From Psychroserpens mesophilus (lineage in GTDB: Bacteria; Bacteroidota; Bacteroidia; Flavobacteriales; Flavobacteriaceae), in the NCBI RefSeq assembly GCF_000826645.1, contig NZ_JXJP01000008.1:62001-126000 (forward strand): a stretch of 64,000 bases of DNA, in the 5' to 3' direction. The position numbers were made by a program, and so were the translations under genes. Positions within the stretch are counted from its first letter, which is position 1. Each line of letters opens with the position of its first letter. A model generated the notes under the pieces. The model was not told the DNA's origin. It saw only the letters and a list, made by a program, of their open reading frames with translations, and searched no databases. Positions 4,404-59,077 of the stretch are shown here, piece by piece.

Positions 4404-5801
4404 ATGCTAACCAAACTAGGTGAAAGGTTTACAATTATTTTTCAAAAGTATATGCCAGATGCATTTGTTTTTGCGCTTATACTAACATTAATCACAGGCC
4501 TCTCTGCATATATTTGGTCTGGTAAAAATATAATGGAGATTATAGTTGCATGGTATGATGGCTTTTGGTCGCTCTTAGAATTTGGAATGCAAATTGTTTT
4601 AATCATAATTACAGGATTTGCTATTGCATTATCTCCAGTGATTAATAGAGGTATTGATATTTTAACCAGTTACATCAAATCACCACGACAGGTTTATTTT
4701 TTTGTCACTTTAATTGGAGCTTTATTATCATTGGTAAGCTTTGGGTGGATTGTCATTACTTGTGTATTAGCCAGAGAATTAGCTTTACGTATAAAAGGCA
4801 TTAATTATCCATTTTTAATTGCTTGTGTTTACTTTTCTGGCGGAAGCTGGGTTTCCGGACTTTCAAGTTCTATTCCTTTATTATTGGGAACAGAAAACAA
4901 TTATTTAATTGAAGCTGGAGTTTTAACGGAAACTATTTCAACGACTACAACACTAGGTTCTCCTTTAAACGTAGCAATGCTTGCTTTATACGTCGCTTTT
5001 GCGCCTCTATTGATTGTATTTCTAATTCCGAAAGAAAAAAAATTAACACAACTGGAAGACATGCTGGAAGTAAAGTCTTCACAAAAAGAGAAGTCTATCA
5101 AAGAGGAAGCTTCCAGTTTAAACCTATCCTTCAGCTCATTATCAGATCGTTTAAACAACAATTTTATTCTTCAATTTAGTATTGTTTTAATCGGTCTCAT
5201 TTATATCGTTTATCACTTTCAGACCAATGGTTTTGAACTGAATTTTAATATCATGATTTTCATTTTCATAATGGTTGGATTAGCATTACATAAAACACCA
5301 ATGCGTTATGTGATTGCTATGAAACGTTCTAGTACAAACATCTCAGGAGTTTTGTATCAATATCCATTTTATGCAGGCATCATGGGCATAATGATACATA
5401 CTGGTTTAGGTGAAGAATTAGCAAATTTACTCGCTTCAACAGCTACAATAGATAACTATCCGTTTTTTGCTTATGTAACAGGTGGCTTTGTCAATTTTGC
5501 AATTCCTTCAGCTGGTGGTGAATTTGCTGTTGTTGGTCCGAGCATTATCAATGCTGTCTCAGAAATTGGCACTGGATTACAACCTGAAGAGCTTAACAAA
5601 ATGATCTCAAGAGCTTCCCTGTCAGTTGCCTATGGCGAAAGCTTAACTAATTTACTACAGCCTTTTTTCTTACTTCTGGTATTTCCAATTATGGGAAAAG
5701 GCATTAAAATCCAAGCACGAGATGTGATGGGTTATTTAGTCTTACCATTTTTACTATTTTTTTTAATTCAATCTATTCTCATAACCTATATACCATTGTA
5801 A
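4404..5801 (+). CDS. Short-chain fatty acid permease, AtoE family
   Basis: This is a 465-residue polytopic membrane protein. The N-terminus (FTIIFQKYMPDAFVFALIL), the segment SFGWIVITCVLARELALR and the C-terminal block FVNFAIPSAGGEFAVVGPSI followed by SVAYGESLTNLLQPFF are characteristic of the AtoE/TIGR00366 family, which imports short-chain fatty acids such as acetoacetate or butyrate in E. coli. Length agrees with the family. It sits 17 bp after an MFS carrier and 29 bp before a DltD-like gene and its MBOAT partner, so a link between acyl supply and surface acylation is conceivable but unproven. Confidence 0.85.
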   Translation: MLTKLGERFTIIFQKYMPDAFVFALILTLITGLSAYIWSGKNIMEIIVAWYDGFWSLLEFGMQIVLIIITGFAIALSPVINRGIDILTSYIKSPRQVYFFVTLIGALLSLVSFGWIVITCVLARELALRIKGINYPFLIACVYFSGGSWVSGLSSSIPLLLGTENNYLIEAGVLTETISTTTTLGSPLNVAMLALYVAFAPLLIVFLIPKEKKLTQLEDMLEVKSSQKEKSIKEEASSLNLSFSSLSDRLNNNFILQFSIVLIGLIYIVYHFQTNGFELNFNIMIFIFIMVGLALHKTPMRYVIAMKRSSTNISGVLYQYPFYAGIMGIMIHTGLGEELANLLASTATIDNYPFFAYVTGGFVNFAIPSAGGEFAVVGPSIINAVSEIGTGLQPEELNKMISRASLSVAYGESLTNLLQPFFLLLVFPIMGKGIKIQARDVMGYLVLPFLLFFLIQSILITYIPL

Positions 5802-48909: not shown

Positions 48910-49353
48910 CTACTTCATAGGCTTCACCTCATTATGCTTAATCACGTGCGACAGCACAATCTGAGTTTTCGTTTCGCCATAGACAATCAGTTGATCGATA
49001 AAGGATTCTAAGTGCTTCTGGTTTTTTAAGACCACTTCCATAACAATATTTTCATTTCCTGTGATGCGATAACAGTTTATCACTTCGTTATAGGTTTTTA
49101 CTTTTTCTAAAAACGGTTTCAGCATGCCCATAAATGCACGTAAGGTAATTAAGGCTTTGAGTTGATAACCTACTTCAAACGGACTTACCAAAGTGTTATA
49201 ACTTTGGATAATTCCTGCATCTTCCATCTTCTTTATGCGCTCGGAAACGGCTGGAGAACTGATGCCAACTTGACGTCCAATTTCCGCATTAGACTGACGC
49301 GCATTGACTTGCAGGCATTTTAAAATCTTCCAGTTTAAATTATCGATTTGCAT
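48910..49353 (-). CDS. Lrp/AsnC family transcriptional regulator
   Basis: The 147-residue protein has an N-terminal winged helix-turn-helix (IDNLNWKILKCLQVNARQSN, AEIGRQVGISSPAVSERIKK) and a C-terminal RAM (AsnC ligand-binding) domain from about 65 (LKALITLRAFMG, NCYRITGNENIVMEVVLKN). Such proteins bind amino acids and act on metabolic or transport genes, often near themselves. It is divergent from the small gene at 49469 and convergent with the MFS-VOC-DJ-1 operon. Its targets cannot be read here. Confidence 0.93.
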   Translation of the reverse strand: MQIDNLNWKILKCLQVNARQSNAEIGRQVGISSPAVSERIKKMEDAGIIQSYNTLVSPFEVGYQLKALITLRAFMGMLKPFLEKVKTYNEVINCYRITGNENIVMEVVLKNQKHLESFIDQLIVYGETKTQIVLSHVIKHNEVKPMK

Positions 49354-49468: not shown

Positions 49469-49864
49469 ATGAATTATAATATCCCATCTCATTTATCTGA
49501 ACTGCCTATCTATCAAAAGGCTATGGATATTCTTGTGTTATCAAGAAGCATCTCGACCTATATTGGTCAGGATTTGTCATATTTACGATCTGATGGTACC
49601 GAAGACACACATATTTACTTTTCTGGAGATATCATTCAACAATCGGAGTCTTTAGCTCCAGAAATAGAAAAAGCGCAAGCCGAACATTGTTCTGATAAAA
49701 AGCACAAACACTTTGCATCTCTGGAACGTTTGGTACATCGTTTGCATTTAAACTGTAACCGTTTGCAACATTGCAATAGTAATGGCAAAGACTACTTGCC
49801 TATTCTTCAAAGTGAATTAAAAAAATTTAAACGTTTACAACGTCACTGGATGATGACGCTTTAG
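49469..49864 (+). CDS. Small helical protein of unknown function
   Basis: The 131-residue protein is predicted helical throughout, with LPIYQKAMDILVLSRSISTY at the start and LPILQSELKKFKRLQRHWMM near the end. There is no signal peptide. The start region resembles small four-helix-bundle proteins of flavobacteria, but I cannot name a family. The last 20 codons recur as isolated, synonymously diverged copies at 50579-50638, and a shorter one at 54317-54361. That makes the 3' end a possible recombination or attachment site. Confidence 0.6.
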   Translation: MNYNIPSHLSELPIYQKAMDILVLSRSISTYIGQDLSYLRSDGTEDTHIYFSGDIIQQSESLAPEIEKAQAEHCSDKKHKHFASLERLVHRLHLNCNRLQHCNSNGKDYLPILQSELKKFKRLQRHWMMTL

Positions 49865-49876
49865 ATTTTTTATGCG

Positions 49877-50479
49877 TTAACCACATGCTTTTCCTAAATG
49901 AACAGATGGTCTGTAGGCATAATAATGCAAGACTTCTTCTAAAGCCTTTTTCAATGCTTTGTTTATGGGTAAGATGGTATGACCTAGTTTAAAATCTATT
50001 TGATTTAGCTGCATATAGTAGTCTGTAAAAACTGGCACATACAATCCTTTAGCTATGGCTTCGGAAGTTGAATTATAAGAATCTGCCTGACCGTCTTTGA
50101 TGATTTTGCAGGTTGCTAATCGTAATGTTCCATATTTATCAGTATTGGCTGCAAAGCCAAAAAGTCTACAAATTAAGCCTCTGTATTTGTAATTGCTACA
50201 TCGACCATGATTAATAAGCGATAACGGTTTATAAATGAAACAGGTTGAATTTTGGGTGTTATTAAGCTTAATAATGGTCTTTTCTGCCTCACCATTTAAA
50301 AATAAATGAAATGCCCAAGGCAAAAACTCTATTGGAGATGCTTCTACATCAGGATACGTACAACATTTGCCACATCCAGCAGCGCAACTCAAACCTGATG
50401 CTTGCTCAAATTGAGCGGCTTCTTGTTCTAATTTAGAAAAAAGATTTTCTACTAATTGAACTTTTCGCTCTATGGACAT
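49877..50479 (-). CDS. YkgJ-family cysteine cluster protein
   Basis: The 200-residue protein has a cysteine cluster of the YkgJ/CxxxCxxCC type: LSCAAGCGKCCTYPDVEASP near residue 30, then NTQNSTCFIYKPLSLINHGR with CSNYKYRGLICRLFGF further on. These cysteines probably bind zinc or an iron-sulfur cluster. Proteins of this family are small and mostly uncharacterised. It converges with the 49469 gene 12 bp away, and the interval is bounded on the far side by a copy of that gene's 3' end (50579-50638). Confidence 0.88.
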   Translation of the reverse strand: MSIERKVQLVENLFSKLEQEAAQFEQASGLSCAAGCGKCCTYPDVEASPIEFLPWAFHLFLNGEAEKTIIKLNNTQNSTCFIYKPLSLINHGRCSNYKYRGLICRLFGFAANTDKYGTLRLATCKIIKDGQADSYNSTSEAIAKGLYVPVFTDYYMQLNQIDFKLGHTILPINKALKKALEEVLHYYAYRPSVHLGKACG

Positions 50480-50578
50480 TGTTTTTTTCTGAAGGTAGGC
50501 TTAATAAAGCCAATACCTTGGTTTTAATCAGGAAAAGAAATTAATGTTGCGTTCTTATATACTGGAAGGTTTGCTCTG

Positions 50579-50638
50579 CTTCAAAGTGAGTTAAAAAAAT
50601 TCAAACGTTTACAACGTCACTGGATGATGACCTTGTAA
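50579..50638 (+). pseudogene. Relic: second copy of the 3' end of the 49469 gene
   Basis: These 60 bases read LQSELKKFKRLQRHWMMTL and a stop, identical in peptide to the end of the 49469 product. All DNA differences are synonymous (for example GAG for GAA, TTC for TTT). The in-frame sequence upstream does not resemble the parent, so only the tail is present. It separates the YkgJ gene from the 1178-residue T9SS gene. Confidence 0.75.
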
Positions 50639-50713
50639 GTTTTAACTACAAACTTTACAATCAGAATTTTTAATGATCTTTTATTTTAAAGTTCATTTTA
50701 TAGACGTCAAACT

Positions 50714-53700
50714 TTATTCTTTAATAAATTGCTTGACCTCTTCAGTATTGTTAGCACCTTCAATTTTTATAAAGTACAACCCACTAGACAAGTGTTCTAC
50801 ATTTATATTAGAGCGACTACTTTCGAATACTTTTTGTCCTTGAATACTATACACCGAAACTTTATTAATTGGCACATCAGTTTTTATAAACACTACTGTT
50901 TGAGCCGGATTTGGATAAACCATAAATTTAGAAGTTTCATAGTCGTCAATAGAAAGACTGTTTCTATAATGAACAATTCCATCTTCTTCAGTAAAACGCG
51001 TAATTAATCCCTCAGTTTCACCTTCAACTTGAGGAATGACCATTCCAAAAGTTTCAAAATCATTTGCTCCATTAAAAAACCAGATATTCATACTTGAGAA
51101 GTAATAATCACCTTCTCCTTTGAAAAAGTCAATTTTTCCAGAGTGGCGTATTGTATTTCCATTATTACTTCCGTTAGAAATAAGACGTAATAAAACACCA
51201 TCTTCATCATACATGGAAATGAAGTAATCGTCTGCTGATATGGTTAAATTATAATTTATATTATCACTACTTGTAAATTCTGAAGTAGACATAGCTTCTC
51301 CATTGTTTGAGACTTTTCCTAAAACACATATTTCGTCGTTGTTTTTTATGATTTTATATCCATAACCATAATATGTGTTTTCCGCACCTTGTATCCATTG
51401 ACAAACACCATTAGTATCTATTTTAGCAACAAAATATTCACCAGCATTCATTGAAGTTGTTGTTCCATCCGTATTCTCAAAAATATGGTTATCGTCCATT
51501 GCTATAAACGAATTATTAACGGCATTACTCCCAGAAATGTAACAATTTCCATTTTCATCTGTTACCATTGAGCGTGCTCGAGTACCATCGGTATATTCCG
51601 TGTCGGTATAACTTCTCAACTTCCAAATCAGTTGACCGTTTTCATCAAATTTTGTTAAAAATAACTTTGCACCATAATTATTAAATTCTCTCCATAAGGT
51701 TTCTGGCACTGGATTGTTTACAGAATACAAATCAATTAAAATTTCAAAATATCCTGATATGTAATAATTGTTGTTACTATCAAAACCTATATGTGTTATT
51801 TCTCCACCATTAGTGTTTTGGTTATAAAAGGCTGTATCCCAAATAACGCTGCCATCTGGTGCAAATTTGACTATGGCATTATTTCTTGAATCCCCTTCAG
51901 GATTTTCAGTAGCTATATGAATTTCTACGCCATTCAAGAAAATTTGTCCACTATTAGCTATTAATCCTGTTGCTACTAAATTATTATCTTGGTCTATAAA
52001 CAATCTTTTTGCGGCAAAGGCACCATGAACATACCATTGAAATTCACCTTTAGAATTCAGTTTTATCAGAAAGCTTTCATTTGCAGAACTTCCGCTTAAT
52101 GGTATTGCATTACCCAAAGTATCGTAGAACGTACCTTCTGATGCACCACAAACATATATATTCCCTAATTGGTCTTCCACTGTTGCATACATTGAATCTC
52201 TGTCATCATAAGAAATATAATTAGATTGAACCTTCACTAACCACTTTAATGCGCCATCTTCGTCATACTTGGTTAAATAGCAACCTTTATCACCTTCTTC
52301 AAAAGTGAACGTTGTTCCCACATTAGAGTCCATTGTTTGATTTTCGTTATAATAGCCACAAGCTAAAAATCCGTCTTGGGTTTTTTCAATATCTGCAATG
52401 TCATCATAATAATAACCAGACCATTGCGGATCGACACCATCATTTAGTATGGTCCAGCTCGTTTGCCCAACTGGAGATTCATAAATATATGGACCAGGTT
52501 TTTCTACCTCATCATAACAGCCATTATCAGACCAGCATTCAAAATTTACTGTAGTTTCACCCAAATTTGAAAAGGTAACTTCAGGATTTTCCATACTCGA
52601 ATTTAACGGCGAGGCACTTGGTGAAAACTCCCAACTAAAATTTTGTGCATCGACAGAATAGTTATTGAACTCAACAACCTCGTTCTGCTTTGCATTAATT
52701 AGTGATTGAAAATAAATGGCTTCTGTATGTTCAACATCAATTGTAAATTGATCCGAAAAGTTTTGGTAACAATTTGCAAGTACATGTTCTGCCCTTAAAT
52801 AATAATCACCAGCAGTATTTATAGGAGCACTCACTAAGGTGATTGTTCCTCCATTTCCGATTGGACTAGTGCCATAAGTGTTACTTTCTCCAACCATTTT
52901 TAAGACATACCTCACATTTGGCTCAGAATTCTCAATTTGAATTTCAATAGATTCTTCTTTACAAAGCAGATTATCAGAAACGGTCGTTGGTTTATTTGTT
53001 TCTGGAGGATTTACAATATGAATGGTAGTTGACAATGTAGATTGCTCACCAAAACTATTTTCAGCAGTTACTACAATATCATAACTTCCAACAGTATTAA
53101 AAGTATAATTAAAATCACTACAACCTGTATTGAATTCAGTGCCATCAAGCGTCCAACTACACGAGTTAGAAGACCCATTAAAGAAATCAAAATTAACCGA
53201 AGACCCAACACATCGTCCAATTGCATCTAATGAGATATAAGGTTTAGTTGCGCCACCTAAGTTTGTGGTTTTAAGAAGCACTCCATTATCTCCACAAGCA
53301 TATATTAATGAAGGATCATTTGGATCGTCCCAAAAGCTTTTAATGGAATATGTACTTGAGCTTGGTTGCCATTCTAGATAGTTATTACTTGTTGTAGATT
53401 TAAAAATTCCATGATCTGTACCAATAAGATGTTGGTTACTAGAATTAATCATGGTTTGCGCATTTAAATCCCCAAAATCGAATCTATTATTGTAGGTGAT
53501 TCCAGTTGAAATTGAAAATCTTGAGTAGTTATTTCCAGCCGAATACATGTTGTACGTACTTCTAAAATCTAATCCTACGTGGTTAACACCTGGAGTATCA
53601 TAAGCACTTAAATTAATATAATTATCAGTACCATAATGATTTCCATAAAATATCTTACCATCTGTTCCGAGCCATAACCTATTAGAGTTAAAACTCACGG

Positions 53701-54250
53701 CATTAAAATCTTCATTATTAAAATCGGTACTAGAAGGATTAATGATGAAGCTCGTTGGACTCGCATCAGTAAAACCAACGATTAAACCATTATCACCTAC
53801 TGCATAGTAGGTGTCTGAAGCCTCTTTAAAACCTATTTTATTGATCCTAGTATTGGCAGCACCATTATAAATGATGTCATAGTCTAAAGACGGAAAGTTT
53901 ATTCTAAAAATAACGGCACTATTGGTTAACGTATTAACTCCTGAAGCATAAACAAACCCGGAATTAATAGCAGTCTCATCATTGGCATAGCAATGCGAAA
54001 ACACTGTGCTTTCATAAATATCTGAATCACCAGAATTGGTCGTAATTTCAAATCGTGTCCAGTCTGATGCATTAGCACCATAATTGGTTGTATAGTATAA
54101 GCCATTATGTCCAGATACAAGGCCGTTGTTATCTAAAAACACAACACCTGTGAAATCATCATTAATATTGGTATTAATAGGTTCCCATTGGCCAAAAGAC
54201 ATCTGAACAGAAATTAAACATATAAATGCAGATAGTAAAAATGATTTCAT
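50714..54250 (-). CDS. Large secreted protein with PKD domains, beta-propeller repeats and T9SS type A sorting domain
   Basis: The 1178-residue protein has a signal peptide ending SFG. An N-terminal propeller-like region (22-330: FTGVVFLDNNGLVSGHNGLYY and similar) is followed by a PKD domain (about 335-410, with CSWTLDGTEF, then VGSYDIVVTAENSFG) and a second PKD-like part (505-585). A long run of SBBP-type repeats follows (600-1080: FLTKFDENGQLIWKLRS, KDGNCYIS-like segments such as DENGNCYISGSN). The C-terminal sorting domain has FMVYPNPAQTVVFI and SGLYFIKIEGANN. It should be exported and surface-bound. It lies between two tail copies of the 49469 gene (50579 and 54317). Confidence 0.88.
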   Translation of the reverse strand: MKSFLLSAFICLISVQMSFGQWEPINTNINDDFTGVVFLDNNGLVSGHNGLYYTTNYGANASDWTRFEITTNSGDSDIYESTVFSHCYANDETAINSGFVYASGVNTLTNSAVIFRINFPSLDYDIIYNGAANTRINKIGFKEASDTYYAVGDNGLIVGFTDASPTSFIINPSSTDFNNEDFNAVSFNSNRLWLGTDGKIFYGNHYGTDNYINLSAYDTPGVNHVGLDFRSTYNMYSAGNNYSRFSISTGITYNNRFDFGDLNAQTMINSSNQHLIGTDHGIFKSTTSNNYLEWQPSSSTYSIKSFWDDPNDPSLIYACGDNGVLLKTTNLGGATKPYISLDAIGRCVGSSVNFDFFNGSSNSCSWTLDGTEFNTGCSDFNYTFNTVGSYDIVVTAENSFGEQSTLSTTIHIVNPPETNKPTTVSDNLLCKEESIEIQIENSEPNVRYVLKMVGESNTYGTSPIGNGGTITLVSAPINTAGDYYLRAEHVLANCYQNFSDQFTIDVEHTEAIYFQSLINAKQNEVVEFNNYSVDAQNFSWEFSPSASPLNSSMENPEVTFSNLGETTVNFECWSDNGCYDEVEKPGPYIYESPVGQTSWTILNDGVDPQWSGYYYDDIADIEKTQDGFLACGYYNENQTMDSNVGTTFTFEEGDKGCYLTKYDEDGALKWLVKVQSNYISYDDRDSMYATVEDQLGNIYVCGASEGTFYDTLGNAIPLSGSSANESFLIKLNSKGEFQWYVHGAFAAKRLFIDQDNNLVATGLIANSGQIFLNGVEIHIATENPEGDSRNNAIVKFAPDGSVIWDTAFYNQNTNGGEITHIGFDSNNNYYISGYFEILIDLYSVNNPVPETLWREFNNYGAKLFLTKFDENGQLIWKLRSYTDTEYTDGTRARSMVTDENGNCYISGSNAVNNSFIAMDDNHIFENTDGTTTSMNAGEYFVAKIDTNGVCQWIQGAENTYYGYGYKIIKNNDEICVLGKVSNNGEAMSTSEFTSSDNINYNLTISADDYFISMYDEDGVLLRLISNGSNNGNTIRHSGKIDFFKGEGDYYFSSMNIWFFNGANDFETFGMVIPQVEGETEGLITRFTEEDGIVHYRNSLSIDDYETSKFMVYPNPAQTVVFIKTDVPINKVSVYSIQGQKVFESSRSNINVEHLSSGLYFIKIEGANNTEEVKQFIKE

Positions 54251-54316
54251 GTGTAAGAATTTTATGCTAATATAATAGTTATAATATTGTTACCCATAAA
54301 TTATGCAGGTCTTTGT

Positions 54317-54361
54317 AAAAAGTGTAAACGCATCCAACGTCATTGGATGATGACGCTTTAA
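54317..54361 (+). pseudogene. Relic: third copy of the 3' end of the 49469 gene
   Basis: The frame reads KKCKRIQRHWMMTL and a stop, against KKFKRLQRHWMMTL in the parent. It is isolated in a 399-bp gap with no matching sequence upstream. The gap (54251-54649) otherwise holds no convincing gene. Confidence 0.65.
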
Positions 54362-54649
54362 GATTAACTACCTTTAAAATTCCTAATGTTTCAAATATTG
54401 TAGTCACTAGTGACTTCTATAGTTTTCAAAATCTATGTTTTTAAGTTCATACCAAAGACGATAAAAGATTGAAAAAGAGGCGTTTTTCGATCTAGATTTT
54501 AGTTCCTTGTTTCATAATAATTAAATGTATTCTTTTAAGCTGTCAATATATATAGCTCAATAAGAAAGAGTAAGCATATCATTTCCAACCCTTACCAAAG
54601 TATTAATAATCAGGTTGAAATTCTATACGAAATTCTGAAGTAATAAATT

Positions 54650-55117
54650 TTAAGATTTGCTGGAAGCCGTTTTTTTCATGTAGTATGCATCAAGTCCTTT
54701 TCCTATCCCGTCAGGAATAATGTCATAGGTTTCGAATCCGTACTTACTAAATAATGAAGCCATTAACTGCGTCGTCGTAATGCCAATATTAAAGGTCTTG
54801 TTCTTAGCAATAATTCGTTTTTCTATTTCAAAATAGAATTTATCTGCAACGGTTATAAGATGTCTAACTCCCAATGAATTATTTTTAAACATTACCCACG
54901 CTACTCTATGTTCTATATCACTTGTATAAAGACCTCCACATCCAATAATTTGGTTATCTGCAATAGCAACTAAATAGTTATTATCAGTATAATGATCTAA
55001 ATAGTAAATGAATTCATTTTTCTCCTTGACATCGAAATATTTTGGGCAATTGGTTTCAAAAATATCAATTAAACTCTGCTGATCATTTTTTGTATAAGTT
55101 CTAAATTCTAAATTCAT
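54650..55117 (-). CDS. GNAT family N-acetyltransferase
   Basis: The 155-residue protein has the GNAT layout. It begins LEFRTYTKNDQQSLIDIFET; the central strand NNYLVAIADNQIIGCGGLYT is the usual motif D/A entry, and WVMFKNNSLGVRHLITVADK stands where the acetyl-CoA loop (RxxGxG/A) should be. That loop is less canonical than usual. QLMASLFSKYGFETYDIIPD is the motif B end. The acceptor substrate is unknown. It is a single-gene unit; its upstream region to 55390 holds nothing certain. Confidence 0.85.
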   Translation of the reverse strand: MNLEFRTYTKNDQQSLIDIFETNCPKYFDVKEKNEFIYYLDHYTDNNYLVAIADNQIIGCGGLYTSDIEHRVAWVMFKNNSLGVRHLITVADKFYFEIEKRIIAKNKTFNIGITTTQLMASLFSKYGFETYDIIPDGIGKGLDAYYMKKTASSKS

Positions 55118-55599: not shown

Positions 55600-58500
55600 T
55601 TACATGTTTCGTCTATACTGTCCGCCAACTTCAAACAAGGCTGAAGTAATTTCTCCAAGAGAGCACACCTTACAAACATCCATCAAAGCTTCAAAAATGT
55701 TTTCATTGTTAATGGCTTTGTGCTGTAAGTCTTTTAGCAATTGTTTTGTGTCGTTTGCTTTATGTAAATTCTCTAAAGTTTGAATCTGAAATTGCTTTTC
55801 TTCTTCCGTAGCACGAATCACTTCCGCAGGTAAAACCGTTGGAGATCCTGTACTGCTTAAAAACGTATTCACACCAATAATTGGAAATTGACCATTGTGT
55901 TTTAAAGTTTCATAATACAAACTTTCTTCTTGAATCTTGCTACGTTGGTACATGGTTTCCATAGCACCCAAAACGCCTCCTCGTTCGGTAATGCGATCAA
56001 ATTCTAACAACACAGCTTCTTCTACCAAGTCGGTTAACTCCTCTATAATGAATGAGCCTTGAATTGGATTTTCATTTTTATTTAAGCCTAATTCCTTATT
56101 GATAATCAATTGGATGGCCATGGCACGACGAACCGATTCTTCAGTTGGTGTGGTAATGGCTTCATCATAGGCATTGGTATGTAATGAATTACAGTTATCG
56201 TAAATAGCATACAAAGCTTGAAGCGTTGTACGAATGTCATTAAAGTCGATTTCCTGAGCATGTAAACTTCTACCAGAGGTTTGAATATGATATTTCAACA
56301 TCTGCGCTCTCGGATTGGCGCCATATTTATGTTTCATGGCTTTTGCCCAGATTTTACGAGCCACACGACCAATTACTGCATATTCTGGATCGATTCCATT
56401 AGAGAAAAAGAACGACAGGTTCGGACCAAATTTATTGATGTCCATGCCTCTCGATAAGTAATATTCTACGTAAGTAAATCCGTTAGATAAGGTAAATGCC
56501 AATTGCGAAATTGGATTCGCTCCAGCTTCAGCAATATGATAACCTGAGATCGATACTGAATAGAAATTTCGAACATTATTTTGAATAAAATACTCCTGAA
56601 CATCTCCCATGAGTCGTAAAGCAAATTCCGTAGAGAAAATACAAGTATTCTGTGCTTGGTCTTCTTTTAAAATATCAGCCTGAACCGTTCCTCTAACCTG
56701 AGCAATGGTTTTGGTTTTTATATCATTATACACATCAGCAGGCAACACCTGATCTCCTGTGACACCAAGAAGCATCAAACCTAAACCATCGTTTCCTTCT
56801 GGCAAGTCGCCATTGTATGATGGACGAACTTTACCTTTGTAAAGCTTTGCAATTTTAGCTTCTACTTCTTTTTCCAGTCCGTTGTCTTTAATGTAAATCT
56901 CACATTGCTGATCAATCGCTGCATTCATAAAGAAGCCTAATAACATTGGCGCAGGACCATTAATCGTCATACTTACTGAAGTCATCACATCAGCCAGATT
57001 AAAACCAGAATATAATTTTTTGGCATCATCTAAACAGCAGATAGAAACACCTGCATTTCCAATTTTTCCGTAGATATCAGGTCTGTGATCTGGATCATTT
57101 CCGTAGAGTGTGACACTATCAAAGGCTGTAGATAAACGCTTTGCTGGCAAGCCCATACTTACATAATGAAAACGACGGTTGGTACGTTCTGGTCCGCCTT
57201 CACCAGCAAACATTCGTGCTGGATCTTCACCTGTACGTTTAAATGGATATAATCCTGCTGTATACGGAAACTCTCCTGGCACGTTTTCTTGCAAAGTCCA
57301 TCGTAAAATGTCTCCCCAAGCCTGATACTTTGGTAAAGCCACTTTCGGGATTTGGGTATGCGACAAGGACTCGGTATGTGTTTCTATTTTGATTTCTTTA
57401 CCACGAACTTTAAACGAGTAAATCGGGTTTATGTATTTATTGACTTTTTCTTCCCAACCCGTAATGACTTCCCAATTGTAAGGATCTAGGTTGAGTTTGA
57501 CACGATCGAATTCTGATACAAGCATTCTTACAAAGTCCTTGTTCTCGACTGCGCTCGAACTGACGGACTCACTGTCTATTCCTGCTTTATCAAGTTTTGG
57601 TGTGCTGCCAACAACCGATTCTATCGTTTTATAAATGCCGTAGAGCTTTTGAGCCACTTCAACCTGCTCGTTAACTGTTTTATCGTAAGCGCGATTGTTT
57701 TCAGCAATTTCAGATAAGTAACGTGTTCGCGCTGGAGGAATGACAAAAATCTTTTCGCTCATTTCATCTGAAATTTCAAACGTCGATTTTAAATCGGTAT
57801 CTGTTTTCTCAACCAGCTTATCCATAATCGCTTTGTAAAGCGTGTTCATTCCAGGATCGTTGAATTGAGACGCAATGGTTCCAAAAACTGGTAACTGATC
57901 TTGAGGCGTATCCCAAAGATTATTGTTACGCATGTATTGTTTTTTTACATCACGCAAAGCATCCAATGAGCCACGTTTATCAAATTTATTGATGGCTACC
58001 AAATCGGCAAAATCAAGCATATCGATTTTTTCCAATTGTGTAGCTGCTCCAAATTCCGGCGTCATCACATAAAGTGAGACATCACTGTGTTCTATAATTT
58101 CGGTATCAGATTGACCAATACCAGAGGTTTCTAAAATGATTAAATCAAATTCGGCAGCTTTCAACACTTCAACCGCTTCATTAACATATTTTGACAAAGC
58201 TAGATTAGATTGACGAGTTGCCAAACTTCGCATATACACTCTGGAATTGTTGATGGCATTCATTCGAATACGATCGCCTAAAAGCGCACCTCCTGTTTTT
58301 CGTTTTGAAGGATCGACAGATACAATACCAACTGTTTTTTCTGGGAAATCGATTAAGAAGCGACGCACGAGTTCATCAACTAAACTCGATTTTCCTGCAC
58401 CACCAGTTCCAGTAATTCCGAGAACAGGTGTTTTTGATTTTTTATTTTTAGTATGGATTTTATCAAGCGTTGCTTTGGCCACTTCCGGAAAGTTTTCCGC

Positions 58501-59016
58501 AGATGAAATCACACGAGCAATCGCTTTAGGGTTTTTCTTCGGAAGGTTTTCAATTTCACCATTTAAAGTCTCACCAATGGCAAAATCAGACTGTTGAACC
58601 AGATCGTTAATCATGCCTTGCAATCCCATTTCTCTTCCATCATCAGGCGAATAAATACGATCGATTCCGTAATCCATTAATTCTTTAATTTCCGAAGGCA
58701 AAATAACGCCTCCACCACCTCCGAAGATTTTTATATGTCCAGCGCCTTTTTCTTCCAGAAGGTCGTGCATGTATTTAAAATACTCATTATGACCACCTTG
58801 ATAAGAGGTTAAACAAATGGCATTCACATCTTCCTGAATGGCTGTATTGACCACTTCTTCAACACTTCGGTCATGACCTAAATGAATCACCTCAACTCCT
58901 GTCGCTTGAATGATTCTACGCATGATATTGATTGAGGCATCATGGCCATCAAAAAGAGATGCTGCAGTTACAATTCTTACTTTATGTTTCGGGTGATATG
59001 GTGCGACTTGCTTCAT
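55600..59016 (-). CDS. icmF: Fused isobutyryl-CoA mutase IcmF (methylmalonyl-CoA mutase family)
   Basis: The start at 59016 ([10 protein letters not shown], 1138 residues) is chosen because the promoter at 59044-59077 lies inside the longer reading frame. Order of domains: B12-binding domain (15-150) with [16 protein letters not shown] (the DxHxxG-type cobalamin motif) and [13 protein letters not shown]; MeaI-like G-protein chaperone (about 200-440) with [17 protein letters not shown]; a linker; and the mutase barrel (about 560-1110) with [20 protein letters not shown] and [18 protein letters not shown]. The fused order B12-GTPase-mutase identifies IcmF. It interconverts isobutyryl- and n-butyryl-CoA, linking valine and fatty acid metabolism. 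A repeat-derived [10 protein letters not shown] lies in the linker. Confidence 0.93.
57539..57564. repeat. Palindromic repeat inserted in the icmF coding sequence
   Basis: The plus-strand wording (TTGTTCTCGACTGCG, CTCGAACTGAC) is the flavobacterial repeat of the GTCAGTTCGAG...CGAGAAC type. It forms an imperfect dyad (GTTC-CGA with TCGAAC). It is translated in frame within the GTPase-mutase linker, near residues 484-492. Confidence 0.7.
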
Positions 59017-59043
59017 TCGTAAAATTATGAGTTTAAACGGACA

Positions 59044-59077
59044 CAAATTTACGGAATTTTCAAAAGAAGCCCTCAAA
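59044..59077 (-). promoter_or_regulatory. Bacteroidota-type promoter of icmF
   Basis: On the minus strand TTTG (59077-59074), 22 bases, then TAAATTTG (59051-59044) matches the -33/-7 consensus. The chosen icmF start is 27 bp downstream, and this placement argues against the longer reading frame. Confidence 0.6.

What the first reader, a model, noticed from the sequence alone, without database searches (positions are those of the whole stretch)
49806..54361. 3' end of a small gene is repeated twice downstream, each copy bounding a gene module
The end of the gene at 49469 (LQSELKKFKRLQRHWMMTL, stop) recurs at 50579-50638 with only synonymous changes, and as KKCKRIQRHWMMTL, stop at 54317-54361. 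Between copies 1 and 2 is the YkgJ gene; between copies 2 and 3 is the 1178-residue T9SS gene. Synonymous-only divergence means the copies were recently functional gene ends, probably from different lineages. This is what is expected if DNA modules integrate at the gene's 3' end and rebuild it each time (an att-like hotspot), or if tails were left by repeated gene replacement. No integrase is in the interval, so modules may be mobilised in trans or by homologous recombination.
Basis: partly seen in the sequence, partly recalled or inferred. Interest (0 to 1): 0.7.

Follow-up and report, generated by a model that had tools for sequence, protein, structure and literature searches.

The report
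Gene-end scars left by inserted genes
In a marine bacterium, new genes appear to have been slotted in behind a conserved gene and the old end of that gene stayed behind as a short scar each time, which hints at the order and the kind of recombination by which the new genes arrived.

Summary
The last 45-69 bp of the 49469 gene recur twice downstream and nowhere else in this genome. Copy 2 differs only synonymously; copy 3 also has two amino-acid changes. Each distal tail is followed by remnants of a sigZ operon that still directly follows the gene in relatives, so both were real gene ends. DNA with 80% identity to another genus (ykgJ) fills exactly the space between the gene's stop and tail 2. 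Relatives carry different cargo here, or none. An att site is not supported: scar lengths vary (45 to about 236 bp), no integrase was identified in the interval, viral contigs hold no exact match to the core, and of 397 family genomes only this one had more than one tail at the locus. The same anatomy occurs in this genus at a DUF6503 gene beside nrdA, a 225-aa gene and a PBP1A gene. Best reading: scars of one-sided homologous recombination, each newcomer entering next to the gene and shunting older material downstream, as in Rhs 'C-terminal displacement'. New variant of a known kind; the recombination path is inferred, not shown.

The parts
48910..49353 (-). Lrp/AsnC-family regulator gene, divergent neighbour that keeps its distance to the 49469 gene in relatives
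   Evidence: HTH_24, AsnC_trans_reg; gap 114-138 bp in 33 of 33 loci where both were measured
49469..49864 (+). conserved 131-aa gene of unknown function whose 3' end is repeated
   Evidence: found in 23 of 23 same-genus genomes; no Pfam family over cut-off, no NCBIfam family
49802..49864 (+). tail copy 1 (functional end of the gene)
49866..50571 (.). inserted segment with ykgJ: homologous to another genus over exactly this span
   Evidence: L128 49866-50571, 79.7%; L129 49866-50545, 81.0%
49877..50479 (-). ykgJ-like gene (CxxCxxCC, PF03692), convergent to the 49469 gene
   Evidence: in 2 of 23 genus genomes
50574..50638 (+). tail relic 2 (displaced old gene end)
50639..50711 (-). sigZ-operon remnant: sigZ 3' end joined to the 5' end/leader of the operon
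   Evidence: 50656-50711 = L064 4106-4161, 82%, E 2.8e-7; alignment shows the sigZ 3' end after the stop
50714..54250 (-). 1178-aa T9SS-sorted protein gene (inserted module)
   Evidence: in 2 of 23 genus genomes, the other only 37% identical
54317..54361 (+). tail relic 3 (older displaced gene end)
54373..54500 (-). second sigZ-operon remnant (5' part/leader of the operon)
   Evidence: = L064 4068-4196, 69%, E 5.2e-12, with weaker hits at the same place in other loci
54650..55117 (-). GNAT-like acetyltransferase gene, only in this genome among 23 of the genus
   Evidence: (below cut-off)
55600..59076 (-). icmF (fused isobutyryl-CoA mutase), conserved right-hand landmark; ORF as listed, true start uncertain

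Best explanation
The tails are displacement scars. DNA from a related lineage that carried this gene (or its end) with another gene behind it recombined with the resident gene by homology on one side; the far end was joined without homology inside the resident gene's last stretch. The cell kept an intact (donor or hybrid) gene, gained the new downstream gene, and the resident's old gene end was shunted downstream with whatever followed it. At this locus it happened at least twice: first the T9SS module, then ykgJ, each time next to the gene, so that the most distal tail is the oldest. SHOWN: homology of the tails, selection-like substitution pattern of copy 2, sigZ remnants behind both relics, exact bounds of the ykgJ segment, different cargo in relatives, the same anatomy at other genes. 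INFERRED: that one side was homologous and the other illegitimate, the order of events, and the route (natural transformation or a small circle).
For: Relics 2 and 3 are followed by remnants of the sigZ operon that directly follows the gene in L064/G002, L010 and L012, so they were true gene|sigZ borders. The ykgJ segment matches another genus from 49866 to 50571, that is from just behind the stop codon to the start of relic 2. Copy 2 against the gene: 5 of 5 changed codons synonymous, as expected of two working genes in different lineages, not of a copy decaying in place. Relic 3 and its sigZ remnant are more decayed than relic 2, which fits proximal entry. L007 (Arcticiflavibacter luteus) has gene-osmC-relic-sigZ, with the decayed relic at the sigZ stop, while L012 has gene-sigZ. 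G013 has a 236-bp relic (score 134.9, null maximum 21.6), on a contig not linked to the gene. Other genes: G006 225-aa gene, relic -106 to +24 behind a SnoaL-like cargo gene (score 84.8 against 20.4), and PBP1A (56.5 against 22.4); DUF6503 gene | nrdA: empty border in 4 genomes (G012, G005, G010, G022), cargo plus relic in G002, relic beside nrdA in G013 (score 68.0 against 20.4). Ku was not found in G000 and in 1 of 23 genus genomes, so Ku-type end joining is unlikely here. Published precedents for the model: PMC5361080, PMC2935791, PMC2884548 (passages read).
Against: No donor strain with gene-ykgJ or gene-sigZ-T9SS was found, so the crossover side is not seen. The surviving relics are short in most cases, where a random far-end junction could lie anywhere in the gene; later trimming or a short-homology circle must be assumed. 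The G002 relic is marginal in the alignment test (30.4, null maximum 30.2), though E was 8e-7. A further weak relic in G013 failed the alignment test (18.0 against 21.1). Of three genomes with Na/Pi cargo behind the DUF6503 gene that were examined for a relic, G000 (1 kb searched) and G020 (220 bp searched) showed none. One unexplained reverse-strand tail-like hit lies in L083 (score 3.2; none of 400 shuffled loci exceeded 0).
Confidence: 0.6

Rival explanations
1. Site-specific integration: small modules integrate at an att site in the 3' end of the gene, served by an integrase elsewhere, and rebuild the gene each time.
For: Intact gene, rebuilt end with synonymous changes, direct repeats bounding each module, and proximal entry are what such integration gives (phage 21/e14 at icd, recalled, from no call).
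Against: Repeat lengths vary from about 45 to 236 bp; unrelated genes show the same scar; no integrase among the window interval's genes nor among the 8 relatives' cargo proteins scanned, one of which is an IS200-like transposase; 0 exact core matches in viral contigs; 1 of 397 family genomes with more than one tail at the locus. The cargo of all relatives was not scanned, and the genome was not searched for integrases.
Confidence: 0.12
2. Duplication inside the genome: tandem duplication of the gene and its neighbours, followed by deletions that left only gene ends and sigZ ends.
For: Relics 2 and 3 both carry tail plus sigZ-operon remnant, that is, a repeated block. Tandem duplication across a gene end does occur: G000 C71:351.0-351.6 kb, 107-bp unit in three copies. 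In G003 a ykgJ region is partly duplicated around a T9SS gene.
Against: ykgJ is absent from 21 of 23 genus genomes and the GNAT gene from 22 of 23, so the cargo is foreign; the copies differ as diverged working genes do; the relic 3 remnant reaches further to the right than that of relic 2, so it is not simply a copy of it.
Confidence: 0.17
3. Capture of foreign DNA at a staggered break near the gene end, giving a target duplication of some tens of base pairs.
For: Explains why the relics begin inside the gene and run to, or just past, the stop, and why gene ends are affected rather than middles (9 genes with 3'-end hits, 4 with 5'-end hits, 0 at the middle, of 1683, before inspection).
Against: A fresh target duplication is identical and the spare copy then decays at random; copy 2 shows only synonymous differences. 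Ku was not found in G000.
Confidence: 0.05

Closest known systems
Rhs 'C-terminal displacement' (Jackson et al. 2009, PMC2935791; passages read)
   Same: An intact gene is followed by fragments of its own 3' part, of variable length, each with what formerly followed; newcomers enter next to the intact gene and shunt older ends downstream; homologous recombination, perhaps with small circles, is proposed.
   Different: There the displaced part is a variable toxin tip of the protein. Here the protein's C-terminus is conserved and the exchanged part is the next gene, usually convergent; the gene is an ordinary conserved one.
Sequential displacement of T6SS effector-immunity modules in Vibrio cholerae (Kirchberger et al. 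2017, PMC5361080; passages read)
   Same: Homology-facilitated illegitimate recombination with a conserved upstream anchor is proposed; old 3' material is kept and pushed downstream; the order of arrival can be read from the array.
   Different: There whole immunity genes survive, probably by selection; here only 45-236 bp of gene end and promoter remnants survive.
Dimorphic 'variable segments' by homology-assisted illegitimate recombination (Genome Biol. 2010, PMC2884548; passages read)
   Same: Short variable segments between conserved genes, explained by one homologous and one illegitimate junction.
   Different: The passages read do not describe gene-end relics or polarity of successive arrivals.
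Integrative elements using the 3' end of a protein gene as attB, such as e14/phage 21 in icd (recalled, from no call)
   Same: The gene end is rebuilt with synonymous changes and a spare end lies beyond the insert.
   Different: No integrase identified, no fixed length, many different genes.

Membership tests
Site-specific integrative element at a gene's 3' end | Integrase gene on the element | tested here: not met
   Pfam on the ykgJ, T9SS and GNAT genes shows none; an integrase acting in trans was not searched for
Site-specific integrative element at a gene's 3' end | Fixed crossover core, same repeat length each time | tested here: not met
   Homology starts at -69, -45 and (G013) -236 for the same gene
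Site-specific integrative element at a gene's 3' end | attP copy on phage or other mobile elements | tested here: not met
   0 exact core matches in viral contigs; no relative of the gene there; plasmid and phage collections were not searched
Homology-facilitated illegitimate recombination (HFIR) | One junction in homologous DNA | tested here: inconclusive
   Synonymous divergence of the tails implies diverged homologous genes; the crossover itself is not seen for want of a donor
Homology-facilitated illegitimate recombination (HFIR) | Other junction without extended homology | tested here: met
   ykgJ upstream DNA stops at 50571 and gene-tail DNA starts at 50571-50574
Homology-facilitated illegitimate recombination (HFIR) | Uptake of foreign DNA (competence or other transfer) | not tested
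   competence genes were not searched
Rhs-type displacement array | Intact gene followed by dissociated 3' fragments of the same gene | tested here: met
   relics 2 and 3
Rhs-type displacement array | Variable C-terminal tip on a conserved core (polymorphic toxin) | tested here: not met
   the gene end is conserved in relatives and no toxin family matches
Integron cassette array | intI and attC sites | not tested
   no search for either in G000; the tails of coding gene ends do not suggest attC

The most novel reading that the evidence does not exclude
Single-gene turnover behind conserved genes in these flavobacteria runs largely through short gene-end relics: direct tail repeats of 45-130 bp let a small circle of 'gene tail plus next gene' form and re-enter behind the same gene in another strain, without any dedicated recombinase, and relics are kept because their antisense strand can end transcription of the convergent neighbour. 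The relics then act as a readable clock and order of gene arrivals.
Probability: 0.2. Interest if true: 0.7.

Novelty: new variant of a known kind. Interest (0 to 1): 0.45.

Why it matters
How single genes without any mobile element settle between conserved genes is seldom visible. Gene-end relics give a direct trace: they mark the junction, show the order in which genes arrived, and tell how diverged the two gene ends were. If the signature is as general as four genes in 2.06 Mb of one genus suggest, it can be counted across genomes and would make the part played by one-sided recombination in gene gain measurable.

Tried and rejected
Att site: searched viral contigs for the core and for the gene and 397 family genomes for a degenerate tail pattern; 124 genomes had a match and only G000 more than one at the locus (G244 had two places 207 kb apart on opposite strands, taken as chance). 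Only three genomes of the window's own genus were in that draw, and decayed relics fall below the pattern.

Donor search: ykgJ, T9SS and GNAT proteins in the genus and in 299 family genomes. No genome with ykgJ beside the gene was found; the loci read had about 1.5 kb on each side. In one search only two candidates per genome were scored, so a closer T9SS relative could have been missed.

Relic as terminator: the antisense strand of the tails folds better than shuffles in copies 1-3 (z -4.2, -3.6, -2.3), but in only 6 of 33 relatives (z below -2), and the sense strand does not; kept only as part of the novel reading.

Fixed relic length: dropped, because lengths run from about 45 to 236 bp.

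Hotspot at this gene alone: dropped, because the icmF-59222 gap varies as much (108-3956 bp in 27 loci) as the gene-icmF gap (11-3027 bp in 31 loci).

General scan: of 1683 ORFs of 100 aa or more in 2.06 Mb of five genomes, 9 had a 3'-end hit nearby, 4 a 5'-end hit, 2 and 1 hits at the two quarter points, 0 at the middle; segments with more than six hits were skipped. I dropped five of the nine 3' hits after reading them: a tandem repeat, a T9SS sorting-domain relic, a pair of tandem T9SS genes with their terminators, and two at an IS110-type transposase. Of the four 5' hits, one is a transposase of the same look, one a multi-copy repeat, one weak (E 0.001, opposite strand), and one belongs to a repeat beside a recombinase-like ORF. 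So the 3' bias rests on four genes. A looser whole-gene scan gave 13 and 6 genes with 3'-end matches (down- and upstream, same strand) against 4, 4 and 1 with 5'-end matches; many of these are pairs of paralogous genes.

Literature: searches. None of the listed titles describes such relics behind ordinary genes; searches returned nothing. This is no proof of absence from print. PMC5635113 (hotspots of transfer) was seen only as a listing with the start of its abstract.

Full report
Observation. The last 63 bp of the 131-aa gene at 49469-49864 recur at 50576-50638 and, less completely, at 54299-54361. The core has three matches in the window against 0.01 expected and three in the whole genome. 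Alignment extends copy 2 to -69/+5 and copy 3 to -45/+3 around the stop. Copy 2 differs from the gene in five codons, all synonymous; copy 3 has four synonymous changes and two amino-acid changes.

The locus in relatives. The gene is in 23 of 23 genomes of the genus; records near it are Psychroserpens and, further out, Winogradskyella, Xanthomarina and Bizionia. The Lrp-type regulator on its left keeps 114-138 bp distance in 33 of 33 loci measured. On its right the distance to icmF runs from 11 to 3027 bp in 31 loci, and the cargo is nothing, osmC, sigZ, osmC+sigZ, sigZ+metallo-hydrolase, symporter+LuxR-like, DEAD+sigZ+osmC, or others (families). The next interval, icmF to 59222, is equally variable (108-3956 bp in 27 loci), so gene turnover here is regional.

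What the relics were. BLAST of the window interval against these loci finds, behind copy 2, the end of sigZ joined to the start of its operon (50656-50711 against L064 4106-4161, 82%) and, behind copy 3, the start of the same operon (54373-54500 against L064 4068-4196, 69%, E 5e-12). In L064 (G002, near the window by gene identity, 96%), L010 and L012 the gene runs straight into an intact sigZ. Both relics are therefore old gene|sigZ borders whose sigZ has since been lost. The remnant behind copy 3 reaches further right than that behind copy 2, so it is not simply a copy of it.

The newest arrival. ykgJ is in only 2 of 23 genus genomes, in G003 at another place. Its closest relatives found in other genera align with the window from 49866, just behind the gene's stop, to 50571, where copy 2 begins (L128, 79.7%; L129 to 50545, 81.0%). 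The foreign piece thus lies exactly between the two tails.

Other relatives with relics. A position-weight scan of 53 relatives' loci plus the window, with 36 unique tails, finds a second copy in L007 (score 13.6; 400 shuffled loci never exceeded 0), lying between osmC and sigZ, where L012 has sigZ alone. In G013 (88% complete, 8% contamination) a 236-bp relic lies between a cation/proton antiporter and another gene on a contig that is not linked to the gene; a second, weak relic there did not pass the alignment test. A reverse-strand hit in L083 (3.2) stays unexplained. At the level of the degenerate pattern, 124 of 397 family genomes have a tail and only G000 more than one at the locus.

Not only this gene. 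In 2.06 Mb of five genus genomes (1683 ORFs of 100 aa or more) 3'-end segments recur nearby for nine genes, 5'-end segments for four, quarter points for two and one, middles for none. After inspection four genes remain as true relics behind inserted DNA: the window gene, a DUF6503 gene in G002, a 225-aa gene in G006 (relic -106 to +24, 84.8 against 20.4) and a PBP1A gene in G006 (56.5 against 22.4). At the DUF6503 gene, four relatives have the empty border with nrdA; G002, G000, G020 and G008 carry a Na/Pi-cotransporter gene; G015, G018 and G001 carry an RDD-family gene; G013 has only the gene's last 105 bp beside nrdA (68.0 against 20.4), with no intact copy found. The G002 relic is marginal in the shuffle test (30.4 against 30.2), and no relic was seen behind the Na/Pi gene in the 1 kb of G000 and 220 bp of G020 that were read. 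At the 225-aa gene, 22 of 23 genomes have the gene; nine relatives have a 154-aa gene next to it and only G006 has the SnoaL-like cargo and relic within the 1.5 kb read.

Mechanism. Diverged, mostly synonymous relics of different length, ordered from young (near) to old (far), with foreign DNA ending exactly at the relic, are best explained by one-sided homologous recombination: a homologous junction in or before the gene and an illegitimate one inside its last stretch. A variant with small circles carrying 'tail plus next gene' (as proposed for Rhs, PMC2935791, passages) explains short relics and proximal entry equally well. Ku was found in 1 of 23 genus genomes and not in G000. The donor was not found, so the homologous junction is inferred.

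Known kinds. The pattern works like Rhs C-terminal displacement and the sequential displacement of T6SS modules by homology-facilitated illegitimate recombination (PMC5361080, passages), and fits the view that such events make many small variable segments (PMC2884548, passages). It differs in that the gene is ordinary, its end is conserved, and what is exchanged is the next gene. It is not filed as an att-site element, because no integrase, fixed core or mobile attP was found where these were looked for.

Noticed in passing
window 49841-49858 and the same place in relics 2 and 3: The gene end can form an antisense hairpin (z -4.2, -3.6 and -2.3 in copies 1-3) that would face transcription from the convergent neighbour; only 6 of 33 relatives show it (z below -2).
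   Followed up: partly
window 50639-50711: Deletion has joined the end of sigZ to the start of the small ORF upstream of it; this genome seems to have lost the sigZ operon at this locus, leaving remnants at both relics.
   Followed up: partly
L154 around 5039-5566 (G000 C71:351.0-351.6 kb, outside the window): The 3' end of a 104-aa gene (46 bp) plus 61 bp behind it is repeated in tandem, three copies in all.
   Followed up: no
L086 4520-4640: The icmF 3' end (28 bp, identical) is duplicated around a short palindromic repeat, next to an IS200-like (Y1) transposase gene.
   Followed up: no
L096 8127-8601 and 12433-13564: In G003 part of the ykgJ region, the 3' end of ykgJ included, is duplicated on the far side of a T9SS gene.
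   Followed up: partly
G006 C1 about 168.7-180.9 kb (L211, L212): A repeat containing TTTTTACACGC and CATATAC recurs between small genes near a recombinase-like ORF; it may be an integron-like cassette array (recalled resemblance).
   Followed up: no
G021: Ku (PF02735) occurs in this one of 23 genomes of the genus.
   Followed up: no
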